From the NCBI GenBank assembly GCA_021405325.1, contig QWII01000014.1:1-64000 (forward strand): 64,000 bases of DNA, read 5' to 3'. This stretch comes from Caldilinea sp. CFX5. Lineage in GTDB: Bacteria > Chloroflexota > Anaerolineae > Caldilineales > Caldilineaceae. The position numbers and the translations under genes were made by a program. The notes below the pieces were generated by a model. That model was not told the origin of the DNA. It saw only the letters and a list, made by a program, of their open reading frames with translations, and ran no database searches. This document shows positions 1,245 through 50,160 of this stretch, piece by piece. The stretch's first letter is position 1; every line of letters begins with the position of its first letter.

Positions 1245-1811
1245 TCACGCTTGCTGCACAGCCTTCCGTAGCTCCTCCACGCGAAATTTGTAAGTAGGAC
1301 GTTCACGCACTACGCCCGCTGTATAGACCAAGCCCTGCGCTCGGCTGAAATCCACATCGCCATGTTGATCAAGCAGCGCCTCATCGGCATGAACGGCCTG
1401 CACCCGCCCGATAAAGAGGGTGTGTGAGTCCAGTTCAATTTCGTATTCTACGGTACATTCAAGATTGACCGGGCAGTCCGCCAGCAGTGGCGTCTTCACC
1501 TTCAAGGCGGGTGCAAGTCGCAAACCAGCAATGGTGAACTTGTCCTCGGTGCGCCCACTGACGACGCCAAGGTAATCCGTTAATTGGCGTTGCGCCGGCG
1601 TAGGAATGTTGACGACGAATTCGCCAGTACGCTTAATCAGCGCATGGCAATGGCGCAAGGGGCGCACCGAAATCGAAAGACGCGGCGGCTCGGCAGAACA
1701 GGAAGCAATACGGTTGAGCGTCATCACATTCGGTGTAGAGCCACCGGTGGTGAGCAGAACAACCGGTACTGGATAAAGGGTGGTGTTGGGTTCAAGAATC
1801 CGTTTGTTCAT
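1245..1811 (-). CDS. Flavin reductase-like FMN-binding protein
   Basis: This 188-residue cytoplasmic protein has the layout of the flavin reductase-like / FMN-binding split-barrel family. Members reduce flavins with NAD(P)H or bind FMN for redox reactions. Supporting stretches are PVVLLTTGG near the N-terminus, a conserved NRIASCSAEPPRLSISVRP block, FVVNIPT, and LECTVEYEIELDSHTLFIGRV in the second half. Length fits the family. The ATG at 1811 is the natural start but has no strong ribosome-binding site. It lies downstream of the metallo-hydrolase gene on the same strand (gap about 90 bp), so the two may be co-transcribed. The substrate cannot be told from the sequence. Confidence 0.8.
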   Translation of the reverse strand: MNKRILEPNTTLYPVPVVLLTTGGSTPNVMTLNRIASCSAEPPRLSISVRPLRHCHALIKRTGEFVVNIPTPAQRQLTDYLGVVSGRTEDKFTIAGLRLAPALKVKTPLLADCPVNLECTVEYEIELDSHTLFIGRVQAVHADEALLDQHGDVDFSRAQGLVYTAGVVRERPTYKFRVEELRKAVQQA

Positions 1812-7310: not shown

Positions 7311-8975
7311 ATGCGTCAACGAAAAAGCTGGTCAATCTTGGGCATCGTCCTGACACTGGCGCTGCTGCTGGCTGCTTGCGCACCAGTGGGCGCACCGACA
7401 GCGCCCCAGGCCCCCTCGACCGCAAGCACCGGCGCCGGTCAGGTAGAGCGACTACGCGTGGCGGTGGTCGGTGACGAATCGACCTTAACGCCCTACACTT
7501 ACGTTACGGGCTATCCGGGTTGGAACCTGCTGACACTCCAGTACGATACGCTCTATCAACTCGACCTGAATGGCATCCCCCAGCCGTGGCTGGCCACCAG
7601 CGCCACCCTGAGTGAAGACGGGCTGACTGTCACATTGGAGTTGCGCACTGATGTCAAGTGGCATGACGGTGAAGCGTTTACGGCGGAGGATGTCCAGTTC
7701 ACCTTTGACTATTTCAAGGCGCATAGCCAGAGTCGCTTTACGCGTGACCTGCGCCCGGTGGCATCAGTTGCCGTTGATGGCGAGTCGCGGGTCATCCTCA
7801 CCTTGAGCGCCCCGGCCCCGGCCCTCGAACTGGGGACCCTGGCCGATGTCCCGATCCTGCCACAGCACATTTGGGCGACCGTCGAGACGCCGGAAGAGCA
7901 TCAATTTGAGAGCGGCACCAATATCGGCACCGGTCCCTATAAGTTGGTTGAATACCAGCCGGAACAGTTCTATCGGTTTGAAGCCAACAATGACTATTTT
8001 GCCGGCGCGCCGGCGGTGAAGGAACTGGTCGTGGTCAAATTTGCCGACGATGCCGGCACGTTGGCCGCCCTGCGGGGAGGCGAGGTGGATATGATCGTGC
8101 GCCCCGTTGCCCCGGAGCAGATCGACTTGCTCAAGGCCATGAGCAACATGGCCGTGGCCCAGGGACCGCTCTTTGCCACGCAGATGCTCACCTATGACAT
8201 CACACGCGCACCGTTTAACCGTCTGGAAGTGCGCCAGGCGATGGCGCTGGCGATTGACCGCCAGGACATTATTGACACGGTCTTTTTGGGCGCCGGTACG
8301 ATTGGCAGTTTGGGTTGGATTCATCCGGCCTCACCGGTCTTTAACCAGGAGGTGACGACCACCTACGACCCGGAGCAGGCGCAAAACCTTTTAGAGGAGG
8401 CCGGCATTGTGGATAGTGATGGCGACGGCATTCGTGAGTTGGAGGGCGAACCGCTTGCGTTCGAGTTGCTGGTCAATGGCTCCGATTCCCTGCGCTTGCG
8501 CATGGCGGAGTTGGTCAGCGAGATGTTGGGCAAGATTGGCATAGAAGCCACGGTAGCCGCCGTGGAACAGGCAACCTGGGAAGAGGCGGTGTGGCCCGGC
8601 TTTGATGTCGCCAATGGGCGCAACTACGACATGGCGATGTGGGGCTGGTCGGCGCCGGTGCAGGCTGATGTCACGCGGATTGCGTCGCTGGTACATGCGG
8701 ACCCGGCGATTGGTTCACTCAATCTGAGCGGCTACCAGAGTGAACGGGCCGACGAACTGGCGGCGGCGATCACCACCGAGATCAACCCGGCGCGCAGCGC
8801 CGAGTTGAATCGCGAATTGCAGATGGTCATTGCTGAGGAGTTGCCCTTTATCATGCTGCTCTATCCGGATGGCGCCTACGCCTACACTTCGGGCGTCTAC
8901 GCCGGTTGGTCCTTTATGACCGGCCAGGGGGTCTTCCATAAACTCTCTTTCCTGCCGGAAGCCGCCCGCCCGTAG
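7311..8975 (+). CDS. ABC transporter substrate-binding lipoprotein, family 5
   Basis: This family-5 solute-binding protein (peptide/opine/nickel class) captures a ligand outside the membrane for an ABC importer. It has a lipoprotein signal (LALLLAACAP), a Thr/Ala/Pro linker and the family-5 core, including LRTDVKWHDGEAFTAEDV, FTFDYFK and GTGPYKL. The ATG at 7311 has AGGAGGA upstream, so the mature precursor is 554 residues; the longer frame from 7260 is rejected. Two permeases follow. Ligand is unknown; nickel, oligopeptides or a metallophore are all possible for this family. Confidence 0.92.
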   Translation: MRQRKSWSILGIVLTLALLLAACAPVGAPTAPQAPSTASTGAGQVERLRVAVVGDESTLTPYTYVTGYPGWNLLTLQYDTLYQLDLNGIPQPWLATSATLSEDGLTVTLELRTDVKWHDGEAFTAEDVQFTFDYFKAHSQSRFTRDLRPVASVAVDGESRVILTLSAPAPALELGTLADVPILPQHIWATVETPEEHQFESGTNIGTGPYKLVEYQPEQFYRFEANNDYFAGAPAVKELVVVKFADDAGTLAALRGGEVDMIVRPVAPEQIDLLKAMSNMAVAQGPLFATQMLTYDITRAPFNRLEVRQAMALAIDRQDIIDTVFLGAGTIGSLGWIHPASPVFNQEVTTTYDPEQAQNLLEEAGIVDSDGDGIRELEGEPLAFELLVNGSDSLRLRMAELVSEMLGKIGIEATVAAVEQATWEEAVWPGFDVANGRNYDMAMWGWSAPVQADVTRIASLVHADPAIGSLNLSGYQSERADELAAAITTEINPARSAELNRELQMVIAEELPFIMLLYPDGAYAYTSGVYAGWSFMTGQGVFHKLSFLPEAARP

Positions 8976-38774: not shown

Positions 38775-41162
38775 ATGTTAAAACAGCGGATGGTACGGTT
38801 TTCCCTCGTCGCCGTTGTGGCATTTTCCCTGCTGCTGGCGTTGACCACGGTGTTTTCGGGTCCAGTGTCCACGGCTGTGGCCAAGCAAGTGTGGGGGAAT
38901 GACCAGCAACAGACGGGTGCTGGTCAGCAGACAATGACCAACACCATGTTAATGACCAACACCATGCCCATGAATATGGCTGACATGGGGTCAATGACCG
39001 ACATGATGACCCAAATGACGCAGATGATGGAGCAAATGCAAGCCATGATGGGTGCGGGAATGGGCCGGATGGGCGATAGAATGGCAATGACCCATACGAT
39101 GCCCTTGACCGGCGCCATGCCGATGGGGCAAATGGACGCCATGATGACGAGGATGGGCCAGATGATGCAGATGATGGGTCAAACGATGGGCAGCAGTATG
39201 CCCATGACCGGTACGATGCCCATGGGGATGGATCAGCAAATGCAGACGATGGGCCGCATGATGGAGATGATGGGTCAGATGATGCAGATGCAAACCGGAC
39301 GCGACCACGGCAAAGGCAGGATGGGCGGCCACATGATGCGGATGATGGATCATCGGGGCATGATGAATCATAGCATGGGGATGATGGATAGTATGACCGG
39401 CACGATGCCCATGACTGGCACGATGGCGATGGACATGAGCCAGATGATGCAAATGATGGCGCAAATGCACAAACAGGTGGGCGACATGGGCATGATGGGG
39501 ACCATGACCGGCACCATGCCCATGACAGGGACGATGCCCATGACGGGGACGATGGGCATGGGCATGATGGACATGAGCCAGATGATGGCCTTCCATCGGA
39601 TGCACCGTATGATGCACATGATGGATCATAGGGATATGATGCAGATGTGTATGGAAATGATGGGGCAGATGGGCGGCGCCATGCCGATGACCGGGACAAT
39701 GCCGATGGGGATGATGGGGCAGATGACCAAGACCATGCCCACCACCGGCACGCCTTCTACTGAGCAACCGGAAACGGCGCCAACTACGACGGATCAGACG
39801 CAGACGGCTGAACTCGGCGCCATTACCGTCAAAGTGACGCCGCTGAATCTGGCCGATGCCCAGGCAGAGACAGTAGACTTCAACGTTGTCCTCGATACCC
39901 ACAGCGTCGATTTGAATTTTGACCTGGCCGCGTTGGCCACCCTCCAAGTTGGGGATCAAGAAGTCGCCGCCAGCGCTTGGGAACCAGCCGGTAGCGGCAA
40001 CAGCGGACACCATGTCGAAGGCACGTTACGCTTCCCGGCAACCAATCCAGACGGTGAGGCACTCCTTGAAAGCGCCATGGAACTCGCGTTGGTCTTGCGC
40101 GGTTTGCCTGGAAGTGATGAGCAAATCTTCACCTGGAGCTTGGGTGAGGAAAGTGGCAACGCCGCTGGCGATCCGGCAGCCACAACGCCGACCTCGACCA
40201 TTGAAGGCACTGTATGGATCGCTGACGAGTATGGCAACAGCATCACGGTCATCAATGCCGCCACCAATGCGGTGGTCACGACGCTCACCGGTGTAGAAGG
40301 GCCGCATAACCTGCAAGTGGCGCCCGATGGCAGGAGCGTGTGGGCAGTCAGCGGACATGAAGCTCTGGCCATTATGATTGACCCGGCCACTTATACACTG
40401 CATGGTGCGGTGCCCGTAGGCAAGGAGCCGGCGCATATTATTCTGACGCCCGACGGCAAAACCGCCTATGCGACCAATGGCGAAGACGATTCGGTCACAG
40501 CGATTGATACGGCCGCTATGGAAGTCATCGCCACCATTCCGGTTGGCAAGTCACCGCATGGTTTACGTCCCAGCCCGGACGGCAAGTGGGTCTATGTTGC
40601 CAACGCTGGCGGCACTACGCTAAGTGTGATCGACACGGCCACCAACAGTGCCGTGGCGGCGATTGAAGTGGGCGAGAAGCCGGTTCAGGTTGGCTTTTCC
40701 CCTGATGGCAAGTTTGTCTATTTCTCCCTCAACGCGGAAAACGCCGTGGGCAAGGTAGACGTGGCGACACGCCAGCTTGTGGAGAAAGTAGCGGTTGGGG
40801 TTGGCCCTATTCAGGTCTTTGTCACGCCGGACAATCAGTATGTGCTGGCCGCCAATCAGGGGACGGAAGACAAGCCCAGCACCACCGTTTCCATCATTGA
40901 CGCCGCCAACTTTACGGTGGTTGACACGGTGGAAGTAGGCGAAGGCGCGCACGGCGTGGTCATTGACCCAACGAGCCAGTATGCCTACATTAGCAACATC
41001 TACGGCAATACCATTGCTGTACTTGACATTGCGGCCCGCCAAGTCGTTGCCACGGTTCCATCCGGCGACGGCCCAAACGGGATCAGTTTTTCGTCGCTCC
41101 CCCCCGCCCCGGCCCCCGAACCAACCATTACCCTTGAACTGCCGGAGATGGAGGGCATGTAA
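38775..41162 (+). CDS. Met-rich copper-binding YVTN beta-propeller protein
   Basis: This 795-residue secreted protein has a signal peptide (about 1-36), a Met-rich region to about 330, a small domain of unknown type (about 340-470), and a C-terminal YVTN beta-propeller (about 480-780). The Met-rich region is packed with Met-Met pairs, MTGTMPM repeats, and short His motifs. The propeller has blades such as TIPVGKSPHGLRPSPDGKWV and AAIEVGEKPVQVGFSPDGKF. Dense Met/His should bind Cu(I) outside the cell. AAGGAGATCACGG lies before the ATG. It is under a tandem-repeat box. Because of the repeats, long open frames appear on the opposite strand; they are not genes. Confidence 0.9.
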   Translation: MLKQRMVRFSLVAVVAFSLLLALTTVFSGPVSTAVAKQVWGNDQQQTGAGQQTMTNTMLMTNTMPMNMADMGSMTDMMTQMTQMMEQMQAMMGAGMGRMGDRMAMTHTMPLTGAMPMGQMDAMMTRMGQMMQMMGQTMGSSMPMTGTMPMGMDQQMQTMGRMMEMMGQMMQMQTGRDHGKGRMGGHMMRMMDHRGMMNHSMGMMDSMTGTMPMTGTMAMDMSQMMQMMAQMHKQVGDMGMMGTMTGTMPMTGTMPMTGTMGMGMMDMSQMMAFHRMHRMMHMMDHRDMMQMCMEMMGQMGGAMPMTGTMPMGMMGQMTKTMPTTGTPSTEQPETAPTTTDQTQTAELGAITVKVTPLNLADAQAETVDFNVVLDTHSVDLNFDLAALATLQVGDQEVAASAWEPAGSGNSGHHVEGTLRFPATNPDGEALLESAMELALVLRGLPGSDEQIFTWSLGEESGNAAGDPAATTPTSTIEGTVWIADEYGNSITVINAATNAVVTTLTGVEGPHNLQVAPDGRSVWAVSGHEALAIMIDPATYTLHGAVPVGKEPAHIILTPDGKTAYATNGEDDSVTAIDTAAMEVIATIPVGKSPHGLRPSPDGKWVYVANAGGTTLSVIDTATNSAVAAIEVGEKPVQVGFSPDGKFVYFSLNAENAVGKVDVATRQLVEKVAVGVGPIQVFVTPDNQYVLAANQGTEDKPSTTVSIIDAANFTVVDTVEVGEGAHGVVIDPTSQYAYISNIYGNTIAVLDIAARQVVATVPSGDGPNGISFSSLPPAPAPEPTITLELPEMEGM

Positions 41163-45535: not shown

Positions 45536-46661
45536 ATCGTTCGCTATTTTGTACAATCTCCCGGCGCTGACTATCCTCAATGGATGGCGTCCACGCGGCG
45601 TATTTCGGTAGATCCCGTAATTCCTGCCACGTGAGACCTTGTTTCAAGAAAAAGAGGGCGCCGAGTACTACGACAGGCGCGATGGATGAAGCTGTCATGA
45701 GCAGAGCAATGCTCAATCCTGTCTCTTTGGCCACAGCGAAGAAACTCAAACCATAGGTCAGACTCACTTCGGAGGCGCCCACGATCCCGAAAAGGTGGCT
45801 GCCGACCATATGCGCAAAGGTAACCAGAACATCCAGAAACAAGAAGATCGCCAGGGGCAGCGCGATGCCAAACCCTTGCGCCAGACAGAGCATAATCAGA
45901 CCGGAGGTCACACGCATCGCAACCGAGTAGAGGAGAATCAGCGCCGTCTCACGATGTGTGCCGCCGAACTGTAGCCCCTGGCGAAAGCGTTGCCAACCCC
46001 CGACCAGGCGCGCTTGCCACTGGGGAGAAAGCCTGTTTGTCAACCAGTGGCCTACTTGGGTAAACACCGAAGAACGCTGCTGCGCAAGCACAGTGAGTAA
46101 TAGTAGAACGATCAGAATGACCAACACTGTCACCAGACTGAATATCACCTGCCGCTGAATCTGCGCAAGTTCCGGCGGCAACGTGACCAGCAGTAGCGCA
46201 ATACCACCCACCACGGCGAAGGCGACAATGCCACCCACCCGTTCCATGGCAAAGGTTCCCATGAGCGTGAACACACTAACCTGATACTTTTTCTTGATCA
46301 AATAGGCGCGTACAAGTTCGCCCACGTTGATGGGTAAGATAAGGTTGGTGAAAGCGCTCAGAATCGTTGCCTCAAACAAGAGAGGGAGAGGTACGCGCCT
46401 GACCGGGTTTAGAATCCGTTGCCACCGTAGGGCGCGTAACGCATACAGAAGCAGGACTAGCCCAATCACCGGCATCAACCAACGTTGATCGAACTGGCGC
46501 AATGAGCTTAGTAGAGAATCCCAGGAAAGGAAGTTGAAAGCAAGGTAAAGCAATAGCGCTGATAAGATCAGGGCCAGGATCAGACGAACTCTGCGATTGA
46601 TCACCAATCTTTGTCTCTCCTTTTCTTGGCGTAACGCATGAATGACGCTGACCGTTAACAT
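45534..46661 (-). CDS. Flippase-like UPF0104 membrane protein
   Basis: This 375-residue protein has about eight membrane helices and the pattern of the lysylphosphatidylglycerol synthase TM region/UPF0104 family (LALRWQRILNP-like LRALRWQRIL, LINVGELVRAYLIKKKYQ, ERVGGIVAF). Members are thought to move or modify lipids. It overlaps the stop of the thioredoxin-like gene by a few bases, so the two are co-translated; another in-frame start a little downstream cannot be excluded. It ends the long minus-strand operon from 49855. Confidence 0.85.
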   Translation of the reverse strand: MLTVSVIHALRQEKERQRLVINRRVRLILALILSALLLYLAFNFLSWDSLLSSLRQFDQRWLMPVIGLVLLLYALRALRWQRILNPVRRVPLPLLFEATILSAFTNLILPINVGELVRAYLIKKKYQVSVFTLMGTFAMERVGGIVAFAVVGGIALLLVTLPPELAQIQRQVIFSLVTVLVILIVLLLLTVLAQQRSSVFTQVGHWLTNRLSPQWQARLVGGWQRFRQGLQFGGTHRETALILLYSVAMRVTSGLIMLCLAQGFGIALPLAIFLFLDVLVTFAHMVGSHLFGIVGASEVSLTYGLSFFAVAKETGLSIALLMTASSIAPVVVLGALFFLKQGLTWQELRDLPKYAAWTPSIEDSQRREIVQNSER

Positions 46662-47095
46662 TGACCGCCATATCGACAGACCTGTTGGCGCAAGGCATCG
46701 ACGCTCAGCGGCCCGGTGAACTGCCAGAGGATCTGTCCATCCGGCGCGACAATGACATAGCTGGGGTGAGCGCGTAGACCATACACACGCATGGCCGCCT
46801 TGCCATCCGCGCTGTTGGCGTCACGCTGCTCGAAGGCAAGCTGTGTAGAAAATTCACGTTCAAGCCCATTCACGATGGGCTGCATCTCCTTTCAGGGGAG
46901 TCAGTTATCGGTGTAAAAGAAGATAAACGTATTCAGGCTGCTGGCCGCGCCCACGGGTGTCGGCAACGCCGACGTTGCCTGGTCACCACAGCCAAATAGA
47001 CCGAGCAACCCAATCAGCAAAATTAAAACCACACGACTGTATTGTTTGGAGTTATGATTTTTGCGCCGAAATAGAAGATCATAGACAAATTTCAC
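46655..47095 (-). CDS. Thioredoxin-fold lipoprotein with UxxU (two in-frame UGA)
   Basis: This 146-residue product is read through two UGA codons. It starts at a GTG (47095) with GAGGAGG at 5 nt, has a lipoprotein signal (LGLFGC, Cys36), and then the thioredoxin strand NTFIFFYTDN. The codons that should encode the CxxC are UGA (46903-46901), Leu, Pro, UGA (46894-46892), giving U65-L-P-U68, followed by KEMQPIVNGLEREF, where helix 1 of thioredoxin lies. The cis-Pro loop is RAHPSYVIV (Pro111), and the end is LWQFTGPLS. The frame stays open throughout apart from these two codons. A SECIS-like hairpin follows. Seen: two UGA exactly at the two Cys positions. Inferred: selenocysteine. Alternative: a doubly mutated pseudogene. 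Confidence 0.65.
46864..46903 (-). promoter_or_regulatory. SECIS-like hairpin for two UGA codons
   Basis: Downstream of the second UGA the minus strand folds GCCCAT (46880-46875), loop CGTGA (46874-46870), ATGGGC (46869-46864). The apical loop has G in its second position and starts 17 nt after the second UGA and 26 nt after the first. As I recall, the bacterial SECIS consensus asks for 16-37 nt and a G among the first two loop bases, so one hairpin could serve both codons. Confidence 0.55.
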
Positions 47096-47132
47096 GAAAC
47101 CTCCTCAGTAAGTTTGTCCCTATGATTAGTCA

Positions 47133-48683
47133 CTAGCCGACCGCTATTATGCCGGTTTGCATGAGCGCTTGCCAGGAAATCACAATGCCTACCACTGTAA
47201 TGAATAGAGCGCTGACCACCGGCATCACGCGTAGGAGACGCCCGCTTTCAGGGATGCGGGCAAACCACTGGCCGGCGTGAACAAGCAGAATGCCGATACC
47301 CGTCAATACACTGGCCAGGCCAATGCTAAAAACAATGATCAGAAGTAAGCCCAAGGTGATCCGTTGCAGGCTAATGGCCGCTAACATCATGACCAGGGCC
47401 GAGGGACAGGGCAGTAGACCGCCAGAGATACCCAACGCCAGCAGGTTGCGCCAGCGCACGGGTGAGCCGTCGGCGCCCGGCGGCGTGTGGCTGTGACGGC
47501 GACCGCCATGCCTATGTTCAAGACGCAACCCGTTTTCAGCAAAATCCTCTATCTCATGCTTGTGATTCAGGTCAAGGTCAGCCGGCCCAAAGAGACCGCG
47601 CAGCCGGCCCCAGACCAGAGAAATCCCGATTGCAATGACCAACAAACCGGAAATCAACCCCAACCAGGGATAGAGTTTTTCCGGCAGGATAAAGCGCGAT
47701 GCAAACAAAGTCACGAAACCAAGGGCAAAGACGCCCGCCGTGTGGGTGATGGTTGTGGTCAGCCCTAGAAAGAGCGCATGACGAACGGCGCCGCGCGAAC
47801 CAACCAGATAGGCGGCAACAATGGTTTTGCCATGACCGGGCGAAAGCGCATGAAAGGCGCCCCAGCCAAAGGCGGCCAGCAGCGCAAGGAAAATGGCGCC
47901 CGGCCCTAATGTTGGCATCGTGATCAACTCAGCAAACCGATCATTGGGTTTGGCTACCCCCGGCGCATTAGCCACCGCCGCCGCAACTGGATTGACGCCA
48001 CCAACGGGGGCAGCCGCGCCGCTCGCTCCCGGCGCAAAACGAAACGCGGCTGTCCGAATGTCGAGCGGACTTTGCAATAAATCCGACGGATAGTTGCGCA
48101 GCTCCTGGCTGACATCTTTGTTGGGTACGTCCGACTCGAGCAAGGTAGCGTCGTCCGCTGCTTGCACGATGATCTCACGCCATCCTAAGCGCTCCGGATA
48201 GTTCTCGTCTCGGTAATCGACCTGCCAGGGACCGGCTTGTGTCGGCAAGGGGGCAACAAAGTGCGCTGTAATACGCAGCAATGGTAAATTCGCCTGTCCT
48301 GGTGGGAATTCGATTTGCCGGTCTTGCACGGTCAATGCGGCAGGCGCACCGTCGATCAGCAAAGAAAGATTGCTTTGGATGAGTTCAATCTGTTGTGTTA
48401 CATAGGCTTCCTGCTCCACAGCCGTGATCTGCTTGTCCCCGTTCGCATCGATCTGGAATCGTTCTTGCTGGGTGGGAATTTCGGCCATATCAAGCACATA
48501 CAACAAGTTGATCTGGGTGGCGCCGGCTTCTAGCCGACTATAACGGTTGACGGTAAAATTGCCGAGCGGGTGCGCCCAAAGTAGCGTGGGTAACAGCAGG
48601 GTTAGCACCAGCGCAAGGGCGCTGGCGCTGACGAATCGGCGCTTACGTTGCCATTGGCCAGTCATCAACAATGTAGGATGCAT
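47133..48683 (-). CDS. NicO-type nickel/cobalt transporter with large outer domain
   Basis: This 516-residue protein has a signal/anchor, an extracytoplasmic domain (about 35-230) that begins HPLGNFTVNRYSRLE and holds a DANGDKQIT EF-hand-like loop, then a NicO/RcnA-type membrane domain. The family signature is HALSPGHGKTIVAAYLVG. A cytoplasmic loop is rich in His (HKHEIEDF, EHRHGGRRHSH), as in RcnA-type exporters. The ATG at 48683 has AAGGAGG at 5 nt. It probably moves Ni(II)/Co(II), perhaps other ions. It precedes the UxxU thioredoxin gene in the operon. Confidence 0.85.
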   Translation of the reverse strand: MHPTLLMTGQWQRKRRFVSASALALVLTLLLPTLLWAHPLGNFTVNRYSRLEAGATQINLLYVLDMAEIPTQQERFQIDANGDKQITAVEQEAYVTQQIELIQSNLSLLIDGAPAALTVQDRQIEFPPGQANLPLLRITAHFVAPLPTQAGPWQVDYRDENYPERLGWREIIVQAADDATLLESDVPNKDVSQELRNYPSDLLQSPLDIRTAAFRFAPGASGAAAPVGGVNPVAAAVANAPGVAKPNDRFAELITMPTLGPGAIFLALLAAFGWGAFHALSPGHGKTIVAAYLVGSRGAVRHALFLGLTTTITHTAGVFALGFVTLFASRFILPEKLYPWLGLISGLLVIAIGISLVWGRLRGLFGPADLDLNHKHEIEDFAENGLRLEHRHGGRRHSHTPPGADGSPVRWRNLLALGISGGLLPCPSALVMMLAAISLQRITLGLLLIIVFSIGLASVLTGIGILLVHAGQWFARIPESGRLLRVMPVVSALFITVVGIVISWQALMQTGIIAVG

Positions 48684-48702
48684 TGCGTCCTCCTTGATCA
48701 CG

Positions 48703-49369: not shown

Positions 49370-49855
49370 CTACTGGTTCTTGCTGGTTTCTGTCATCCAC
49401 CACTGGAACTCGCGCTCTTCCCGCCCCCACTTGCTTTTCAGAAAGGTCAAGATTGCAACCATTTGTTCCTCACGCAATTGATCTTTGAACGCCGGCATTT
49501 TGGAATTGTTGGCAGGGTCGCCGCCATTGGCGGTGACGCTCAGTAAAAGCTCATCGGGGTGGTGCCAGGTGTGGCCGGTACTATCGTGGGGCGGTGGCGG
49601 ATAGGAGCGGTCGGCCAGCGGCGTTTTCCAGTCGGGCGCGCCTTGCAATTGGGCGCCGTGGCACGCCGCACAATGCTGCTGATAGAGCGCTTCCCCGTGG
49701 GCTACGGTCTCAGAGTTTAGGGTGGGGAGCGGTGGGACAGGCGTCTGATTGATCACCACCGGTCCGTTGCGCGAGGCCAGTGGGCGCCAGACGAATAAGT
49801 CCAGACCCATGTACGCGAGGATGGCCAGCGCCACCCAAATGCGCCAATGTTTCAT
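49370..49855 (-). CDS. Membrane-anchored class I cytochrome c
   Basis: This 161-residue protein has one N-terminal membrane helix (about 6-25) and a single haem domain with CAACHG and a likely axial Met in [10 protein letters not shown]. The length and the [27 protein letters not shown] pattern fit small diheme-free class I cytochromes c of the CccA/cytochrome c6 kind. It overlaps the MerE-like gene by 4 bp, so the two are coupled. It likely carries electrons outside the membrane; the cytochrome c maturation genes lie 2-10 kb away. Confidence 0.9.
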
Positions 49856-50160
49856 ACGGCTACTTGCTTGCCCGTTTCTGGGAGAGCGGCTGTGGTTACC
49901 CGTTTCCCTACAGTAAGCGACTTGGGGGTGCAGTGCCGGGCGTCAGGTTGTCTACTCCAACGCAACGCCAACGTTAGACTCAGCAGAAAGAGGAGCGCCA
50001 GCCCGCCATAGACCCAACCCGTATAGTGCGTTAACCAGACCGCCGCTGGCGTTCCAGCCAGCAACGGTAGGAGGAACGGTAGGAGCAACGGTAGATGACA
50101 GGGACAGGTCACGGCAGAGAGCGCAAACATGATGGTGCTACGGATATTAGTCAAACCCAT
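49852..50160 (-). CDS. MerE-like small membrane protein
   Basis: This 102-residue protein has two membrane helices and the motif [12 protein letters not shown], which matches the CPCHLP site of MerE mercury transport proteins. The loop after it is Pro/Leu-rich and a second helix follows; the C-terminal tail is basic with one Cys. AAAGGAG lies 6-8 nt before the ATG. Classical merA or merP genes are not present, so it may carry another soft metal, or a mercury function may be completed elsewhere. Confidence 0.75.

What the first reader, a model, noticed from the sequence alone, without database searches (positions are those of the whole stretch)
46655..47095. Candidate selenoprotein: thioredoxin-fold lipoprotein with a UxxU (two UGA) active site
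A lipoprotein signal and thioredoxin strand (NTFIFFYTDN) run straight into UGA-Leu-Pro-UGA, then into helix 1 (KEMQPIVNGLE) and a normal cis-Pro loop (AHPSY). Both UGA codons sit exactly at the two Cys positions of a CxxC, and the frame is otherwise open for 146 codons. A hairpin (46880-46864) places its apical loop 17 nt after the second and 26 nt after the first UGA, with G second in the loop, as the bacterial SECIS model (from memory) requires. UGA is a real stop elsewhere here (many ATGA overlaps), so code reassignment is unlikely. UxxU diselenide motifs are known in the SelL family; a thioredoxin-like lipoprotein with UxxU in a copper/metal operon would be a different setting.
Basis: partly seen in the sequence, partly recalled or inferred. 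Interest (0 to 1): 0.95.

Follow-up and report, generated by a model that had tools for sequence, protein, structure and literature searches.

The report
Thioredoxin with two selenocysteines
This bacterial gene has two UGA stop codons exactly where a thioredoxin's two active-site cysteines belong, followed by an RNA hairpin that dozens of relatives conserve; both codons are therefore likely read as selenocysteine, which would make a membrane-anchored redox protein with an all-selenium active site.

Summary
Confirmed. Window 46655-47095 (-) is one 147-codon frame, GTG to TAA, with a lipoprotein-like signal, a thioredoxin domain (PF00085, E 4.5e-7) and TGA at both CxxC positions. Among 96 distinct family members analysed, nearly all from Anaerolineae (Chloroflexota), 53 have UxxU, 32 UxxC and 11 CxxC; with both residues masked, 51 UxxU rows form one supported group without a Cys form. 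A hairpin behind the UGAs fits the published bacterial SECIS limits for both. All 85 Sec-type rows keep its CGT loop, 4 of 11 Cys rows do, and 5 of 7 pairs show compensatory changes. selA passes its cut-off in 90 of 97 genomes whose best member has an in-frame TGA and in 3 of 14 without; tRNA-Sec(UCA) was found in 12 of 15 genomes of the first UGA-bearing relatives. No NCBIfam model passes its cut-off for the window protein, and a 119-family review table has no such entry. Against: the window's own genome is not held, and two genomes have an intact UxxU gene but no detected Sec machinery. The redox role near cytochrome c and copper genes is inferred.

The parts
46655..47095 (-). Twin-UGA thioredoxin-fold lipoprotein gene (146 residues, U65 and U68)
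   Evidence: translation; PF00085 30.3 bits against cut-off 23.5; fold model mean pLDDT 88; best PDB fold matches are thioredoxins
46901..46903 (-). UGA1, first active-site codon (residue 65)
   Evidence: T, G, A invariant in 85 of 85 Sec-type rows, which were chosen as having UGA here
46892..46894 (-). UGA2, second active-site codon (residue 68)
   Evidence: UGA in 53 and Cys in 32 of the 85 Sec-type rows
46863..46881 (-). Predicted bacterial SECIS hairpin, 7 bp with loop CGTGA
   Evidence: compensatory changes in 5 of 7 pairs over 85 rows; loop CGT in 85 of 85 Sec-type and 4 of 11 Cys rows; fits the published model
46988..46999 (-). Lipobox LFGC (residues 33-36)
   Evidence: sequence; the Cys is invariant in 16 of 16 aligned relatives; lipobox-like motif in 47 of 51 UxxU genes by pattern only
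46757..46768 (-). cis-Pro loop HPSY (residues 110-113)
   Evidence: alignment with thioredoxins
47100..47106 (-). Shine-Dalgarno-like GAGGAGG before the GTG start
   Evidence: sequence
47133..48701 (-). Upstream neighbour: NicO-type membrane protein with a weak DsbD_2 match; possible operon partner, untested
   Evidence: PF03824 E 2.5e-18, PF13386 E 1e-5
49370..49855 (-). Nearby c-type cytochrome; a neighbour type that recurs in relatives
   Evidence: PF00034 E 1.2e-11

Best explanation
The gene at 46655-47095 (-) encodes a thioredoxin-fold protein whose two in-frame UGA codons are likely both translated as selenocysteine, directed by one predicted SECIS hairpin 17 and 26 nt behind them, giving a predicted membrane-anchored lipoprotein with a Sec-x-x-Sec active site that would reduce disulfides outside the cytoplasmic membrane. 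Shown: the frame, both UGAs at the CxxC positions, the hairpin, its conservation with compensatory changes, its decay in most Cys forms, and the link to Sec-synthesis genes across relatives. Inferred: Sec insertion in this organism by SelB, tRNA-Sec, SelA and SelD; use of one hairpin for two UGAs 9 nt apart (stem base 10 nt after UGA2 and 19 nt after UGA1); lipidation; cycling between diselenol and diselenide. Inferred function: a reductase fed by a DsbD/CcdA-like membrane carrier that keeps thiols of c-type cytochromes or copper-site proteins reduced, because such genes recur beside it.
For: UGA at both CxxC positions. 53 UxxU sequences, 51 of them in one supported group of the masked tree (98/96), none with Cys. 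Hairpin: 91.6% of cells paired against 84.3% in shuffles, 52 cells changed on both sides against 11.9, none of 500 shuffles as high for either; synonymous codons fixed only inside it, e.g. Ile ATC 50 of 50 against 44% elsewhere in the same genes; all published bSECIS limits met. Machinery; selA 90 of 97 against 3 of 14; ARAGORN tRNA-Sec in 0 of 5 Cys-form genomes (G250, G169, G304, G019, G299). Function: neighbours.
Against: The window's own genome is not held, so its Sec machinery is untested. G009 and G336 have intact UxxU genes with the hairpin, but no selA, selB, selD or tRNA-Sec detected. Two covariation measures are weak: the number of pairs with a double change (5 against 3.4; reached in 30 of 500 shuffles) and of further pair types (10 against 9.4; 168 of 500). 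Rows are related, so the shuffles give no probability. Folding energy is unremarkable. No protein-level evidence; the partners and function are guesses from gene order, and each recurring neighbour type is seen in a minority of loci.
Confidence: 0.82

Rival explanations
1. Same twin-Sec protein, other chemistry: the two selenolates bind a soft metal such as copper or mercury (chaperone or scavenger) instead of cycling electrons.
For: HMA/copper-ATPase, cupredoxin and DUF411 genes recur beside relatives; CopZ-like, MerR and MerE-like genes lie within 3 kb in the window.
Against: A complete thioredoxin fold with a cis-Pro loop, UxxC and CxxC sisters, and DsbA-like and DsbD-type neighbours in some loci point to redox exchange.
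Confidence: 0.2
2. Only one UGA is decoded efficiently; most product stops at the other, and the protein is poorly made or regulated by selenium.
For: The hairpin has the same distance to position 1 in UxxC and UxxU genes, and no second hairpin is conserved in the rows seen.
Against: UxxU is kept in 51 of 51 rows of a diverse group, and both distances lie within the published 16-37 nt.
Confidence: 0.1
3. The UGAs are plain stops: a pseudogene or two short ORFs, or an assembly error.
For: Databases hold the downstream half as a separate short protein (53 hits); G009 and G336 carry the gene without detected Sec machinery.
Against: The same two UGAs in 53 distinct sequences, the protein conserved on both sides of them, the hairpin's compensatory changes and the link with selA.
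Confidence: 0.04
4. UGA is reassigned to Cys or Trp in this organism.
For: Two in-frame UGAs in one gene.
Against: TGA ends other frames in the window (13 of 59 ORFs); the relatives' tRNA reading UGA is a tRNA-Sec by ARAGORN; the hairpin would have no role.
Confidence: 0.01

Closest known systems
Selenoprotein thioredoxin, PF00085, UxxC (table of PMC13188914)
   Same: Same Pfam domain, Sec at the first active-site position, redox fold.
   Different: Listed with one Sec only; here Sec at both positions, with a lipoprotein-like signal.
Prx-like UxxU proteins (PF00578 in PMC13188914; 'Prx-like 2' in PMC2398784, passages) and animal SelL (recalled; cited in PMC2398784's references)
   Same: UxxU motif, thioredoxin-type fold, possible diselenide.
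   Different: Peroxiredoxin-like domains; the window protein matches PF00085 only and no SelL-related NCBIfam model at E 0.1.
Rcas_1661 family thioredoxin-like (seleno)lipoprotein, NF041057
   Same: Named after a Chloroflexota gene (Roseiflexus, recalled); lipoprotein, thioredoxin superfamily, UxxC in the review table.
   Different: DsbG-like; not matched by the window protein at E 0.1, by 1 of 16 members at E 3.3e-5. Neighbours of two UxxU genes resemble it below its cut-off.
TlpA/ResA-type membrane-tethered thioredoxins (role recalled)
   Same: Extracytoplasmic reductants for cytochrome c and copper sites, the role proposed here.
   Different: CxxC; no TlpA/ResA model reaches its cut-off for the window protein.

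Membership tests
Bacterial SelB-dependent selenoproteins | In-frame UGA at a catalytic Cys position, with Cys homologues | tested here: met
   UxxU 53, UxxC 32, CxxC 11 of 96
Bacterial SelB-dependent selenoproteins | bSECIS: loop 3-9 nt, stem 4-16 bp, G in the first two loop places, 16-37 nt to the loop, MFE at most -7.5 | tested here: met
   loop 5, stem 7, G second, 17 and 26 nt, -9.9 kcal/mol (limits)
Bacterial SelB-dependent selenoproteins | selA, selB, selD and tRNA-Sec in the same genome | tested here: inconclusive
   own genome not held; all four in 11 of the first 15 genomes with UGA-bearing relatives, none detected in G009 and G336
Bacterial SelB-dependent selenoproteins | Selenium in the protein (75Se or mass spectrometry) | not testable with these tools
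   needs cells or protein
Thioredoxin (PF00085) | Domain over the gathering score, active-site pair and cis-Pro | tested here: met
   30.3 against 23.5 bits
Prx-like UxxU selenoproteins (PF00578) | PF00578 match | tested here: not met
   only PF00085 at E 0.001
Rcas_1661 (seleno)lipoprotein family NF041057 | Model over its cut-off of 190 bits | tested here: not met
   window protein has no match at E 0.1
Bacterial lipoproteins | Signal helix followed by a lipobox Cys | tested here: met
   LFGC at residues 33-36 by eye, model helix 16-34, Cys invariant in 16 of 16; no signal predictor was available

The most novel reading that the evidence does not exclude
An obligately twin-Sec thioredoxin lineage: a whole group of Anaerolineae lipoproteins in which neither active-site selenium is replaced by sulfur, made by one SECIS hairpin that recodes two UGAs only 9 nt apart, and working as a diselenide reductant for extracytoplasmic cytochrome c and copper proteins.
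Probability: 0.5. Interest if true: 0.82.

Novelty: new variant of a known kind. Interest (0 to 1): 0.72.

Why it matters
Two Sec residues in one small redox site are rare: in the 119-family table of the 2026 review three entries list UxxU, none of them a PF00085 thioredoxin. This lineage offers 51 natural twin-Sec thioredoxins beside UxxC and CxxC sisters in the same class of bacteria, so two questions become directly testable: what a diselenide gives a thioredoxin that Sec-Cys does not, and whether one bacterial SECIS can decode two nearby UGAs. It also shows selenoproteins standing in databases as truncated short proteins (53 of 53 hits begin at or behind the Met after UGA2).

Tried and rejected
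Viral contigs: the patterns matched 4 stretches, none a relative. Plasmids: one haloarchaeal thioredoxin at 37% identity. Rfam on the window: nothing over threshold. Other Sec genes in the window: a script listed TGA read-through candidates; by eye they looked like adjacent gene pairs or spurious frames, and none was tested further. A strict DNA pattern (double TGA plus exact hairpin core) hit 2 of 400 genomes of the phylum, G001 and G006, both known; it misses variant stems and is no census. Rfam tRNA-Sec scores near the cut-off proved misleading: hits of 47-52 bits in G010, G019, G118, G169, G299 and G304 are tRNA-Ser by ARAGORN, while those of 66 bits or more that I checked are tRNA-SeC. 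A TGA-bearing hit in G009 (L143) was only its ordinary stop. Rejected as main reading: code reassignment, sequencing error, pseudogene.

Limits of the counts. One search was typed by hand from the printed rows: best listed member per genome (111 genomes), the tool's in-match TGA count taken as proxy for U, selA judged from its E-value; G157 was dropped as a partial match, and genomes with weaker, unlisted matches are not in it. Kinship among genomes is not corrected for. The seven TGA-bearing genomes without selA over the cut-off are G011, G336, G118, G062, G325, G362 and G260; four of them have tRNA-SeC by ARAGORN (G011, G062, G362, G260), which suggests incomplete assemblies. The 60 regions are the next 60 rows by rank, not chosen by TGA. 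Of 101 distinct sequences, five under 69 bits were left out of tree and alignments: two CxxC thioredoxins of the window, one each of L069 and L113, and the UxxC protein of L006. Neighbour genes were called by a longest-ORF rule near the 51 UxxU genes: 34 upstream and 43 downstream ORFs, some probably spurious, all scanned. The absence of full-length Cys homologues is limited by its word filter.

Full report
What is there. The minus-strand frame 47095-46655 begins with GTG behind GAGGAGG and ends with TAA; its only in-frame TGAs are codons 65 and 68. Read with U it gives a signal helix, a lipobox LFGC, the strand TFIFFYTDN, U-L-P-U, the helix KEMQPIVNGLE and the loop HPSY. It matches PF00085 over the gathering score, aligns its two U with the cysteines of the CGPC of a solved thioredoxin, and is modelled as a thioredoxin fold (mean pLDDT 88) whose 50 listed PDB matches are thioredoxins or proteins fused to one, as far as their titles tell.

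Relatives. A full-length search of 5.8 billion proteins found two hits, both lacking the part before the UGAs. A search with the part behind UGA2 found 53 proteins of 72-90 aa: 51 begin at the Met after UGA2 and two at the next start codon. In genome contigs 16 loci were found: 12 UxxU, 3 UxxC and 1 CxxC; the CxxC one is in a record titled Deltaproteobacteria, the others in records titled Caldilineaceae, Anaerolineae, Anaerolineaceae or Chloroflexi. A survey of 396 genomes of the same class gave 379 with some match at E 0.001, probably including many ordinary thioredoxins. Its top 90 rows (30 given as loci, 60 fetched), the 16 loci and the window gave 101 distinct sequences; the 96 of 69 bits or more are 53 UxxU, 32 UxxC and 11 CxxC. 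With both motif residues masked, 51 UxxU rows, the window among them, form one group (98/96 support; tree rooted at the midpoint for drawing; few columns, so many forks are open). A 52nd (L136) lies inside the UxxC group beside a UxxC sister, so UxxU seems to have arisen more than once; the 53rd (L124) is a long, weakly placed branch.

The hairpin. Counted from the first base of UGA1, columns 23-29 pair with 35-41 around the loop CGTNN. All 85 Sec-type rows keep C30, G31 and T32. Pairing is 91.6% against 84.3% in shuffles, 52 cells are changed on both sides against 11.9, and the covariation score is 0.312 against 0.170; none of 500 shuffles reaches any of the three. Five of seven pairs show double changes: A-U to G-C in 17 rows, C-G to U-A in 13 and to G-C in 2 at one pair, G-C to A-U in 15 at another. 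Two measures are weaker: pairs with a double change (5 against 3.4; 30 of 500) and further pair types (10 against 9.4; 168 of 500). Sliding the partners by 1-3 columns drops pairing to 13-47%. Rows are related, so these figures are not probabilities. In 11 CxxC rows pairing is 67.5%, and the CGT loop remains in 4 of 11 against 85 of 85. Synonymous codons are fixed inside the hairpin but not elsewhere in the same genes: in the UxxU set Ile ATC 50 of 50 against 44%, Val GTG 53 of 53 against 35%, Gly GGG 47 of 48 against 23%, Pro CCC 49 of 52 against 31%. The element meets the published bSECIS limits for both UGAs (PMC13188914, figure legend seen as a passage; geometry). Energy alone is not striking.

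Machinery. In the 15 genomes behind L001-L015, selA is over its cut-off in 13, selB in 12, with two further fragments in G001, selD in 14, of which 13 have an in-frame TGA of their own, and tRNA-Sec with anticodon UCA in 12; 11 have all four. The CxxC genome G016 has none over the cut-off. Over the class selA is over its cut-off in 315 of 396 genomes. Among the 111 genomes with a listed member, selA is over the cut-off in 40 of 44 whose best member has two TGAs, 50 of 53 with one and 3 of 14 with none (Fisher p 2e-8, kinship ignored). Of five genomes with Cys forms that were searched, G250, G169, G304, G019 and G299, none has a tRNA-Sec by ARAGORN or at E 1e-7, and three of them that were searched for selB and selD (G250, G169, G304) have neither over the cut-off. 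L072 of G250 is CxxC, keeps a relic of the hairpin and is the sister of a UxxC gene at 100/100: it looks like Sec replaced by Cys after loss of the machinery.

Exceptions. G009 and G336 have intact UxxU genes with the hairpin (6 and 5 of 6 inner pairs), but selA, selB, selD and tRNA-Sec are absent or under the cut-offs. G336 is mostly one contig, with matches up to 5.46 Mb of 5.6 Mb, so an assembly gap explains little there; 28 of 41 genomes sampled from its family, G336 included, have selA over the cut-off. G118 also lacks selA and selD over the cut-off and tRNA-Sec, but has selB; G325 has selD only. Recent loss of the machinery is my guess for G009 and G336; it remains unexplained.

Function. 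Around the 51 UxxU genes the gene next door is a c-type cytochrome in 10 of 34 upstream and 6 of 43 downstream ORFs, has an HMA domain in 4 and 5, a cupredoxin domain in 3 and 1, COX2 in 2 upstream, DUF411 in 2 downstream, a DsbA-like thioredoxin in 3 downstream and DsbD_TM in 1 downstream; the remaining ORFs fall in many families or none. The window has cytochrome c, DUF3105, MerE-like, MerR and CopZ-like genes within 4 kb and a NicO protein with a weak DsbD_2 match directly upstream. From this I infer an extracytoplasmic reductase for haem- or copper-site thiols; metal binding is the main rival. No partner was tested. L006 and L008 carry a second predicted Sec gene just upstream with a UxxC motif; the one of L008 resembles ResA.

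Known or new. NCBIfam of June 2026 has no model over its cut-off for the window protein or for the six other members shown with cut-offs; over all 16 members of A2 the hits at E 0.001 are general thioredoxin-type models plus weak hits to a few selenoprotein families, among them NF041057 in one member at E 3.3e-5. The table of PMC13188914 (119 families; section 7, parts 1 and 2 of 3 read) lists UxxU for a PF00578 Prx-like protein, a metal-binding protein and FmdB, and PF00085 only as UxxC. PMC2398784 reports UxxU in a Prx-like 2 family (passages); PMC9312934 and PMC1088965 were seen as passages; PMC12013277 was searched for four terms without a hit. Full-text searches showed no paper on this family in their listings, which were capped; subscription papers are not held. 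I therefore call it a new twin-Sec family of a known kind.

Noticed in passing
L069 (genome G336) 1681-1728 and L009 (genome G009) 8091-8138: Intact UxxU genes with the hairpin in two genomes where no selA, selB, selD or tRNA-Sec was detected; unexplained.
   Followed up: partly
L072 (genome G250) 1690-1737 (-): A CxxC gene that keeps a relic SECIS-like hairpin, sister to a UxxC gene, in a genome without detected Sec machinery: a likely Sec-to-Cys reversion.
   Followed up: partly
L008:7356-7976 and L006 around 7662: A ResA-like gene with UxxC (UPVC, UQPC) directly upstream of the UxxU gene: two predicted selenoprotein genes in tandem.
   Followed up: partly
L136 (genome G220) 2611-2658: A UxxU member inside the UxxC group beside a UxxC sister (L117): apparently a second origin of the twin-Sec motif.
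   Followed up: no
L114 (genome G034) 2589 and 2977: Two UxxC thioredoxin genes about 390 nt apart on the same strand.
   Followed up: no
window 38775-41162 (+): A 795-aa ORF with a long Met-rich repeat stretch (MTGTMPMTGTMP...) followed by repeats that read like a beta-propeller; possibly copper-related.
   Followed up: no
window 49852-50160 (-): Small membrane protein matching MerE (PF05052, E 3.3e-7), overlapping the start of the cytochrome c gene.
   Followed up: no
genomes G001-G008 and G011-G015: selD itself has one in-frame TGA in these 13 genomes, as expected if SelD is a selenoprotein there.
   Followed up: no
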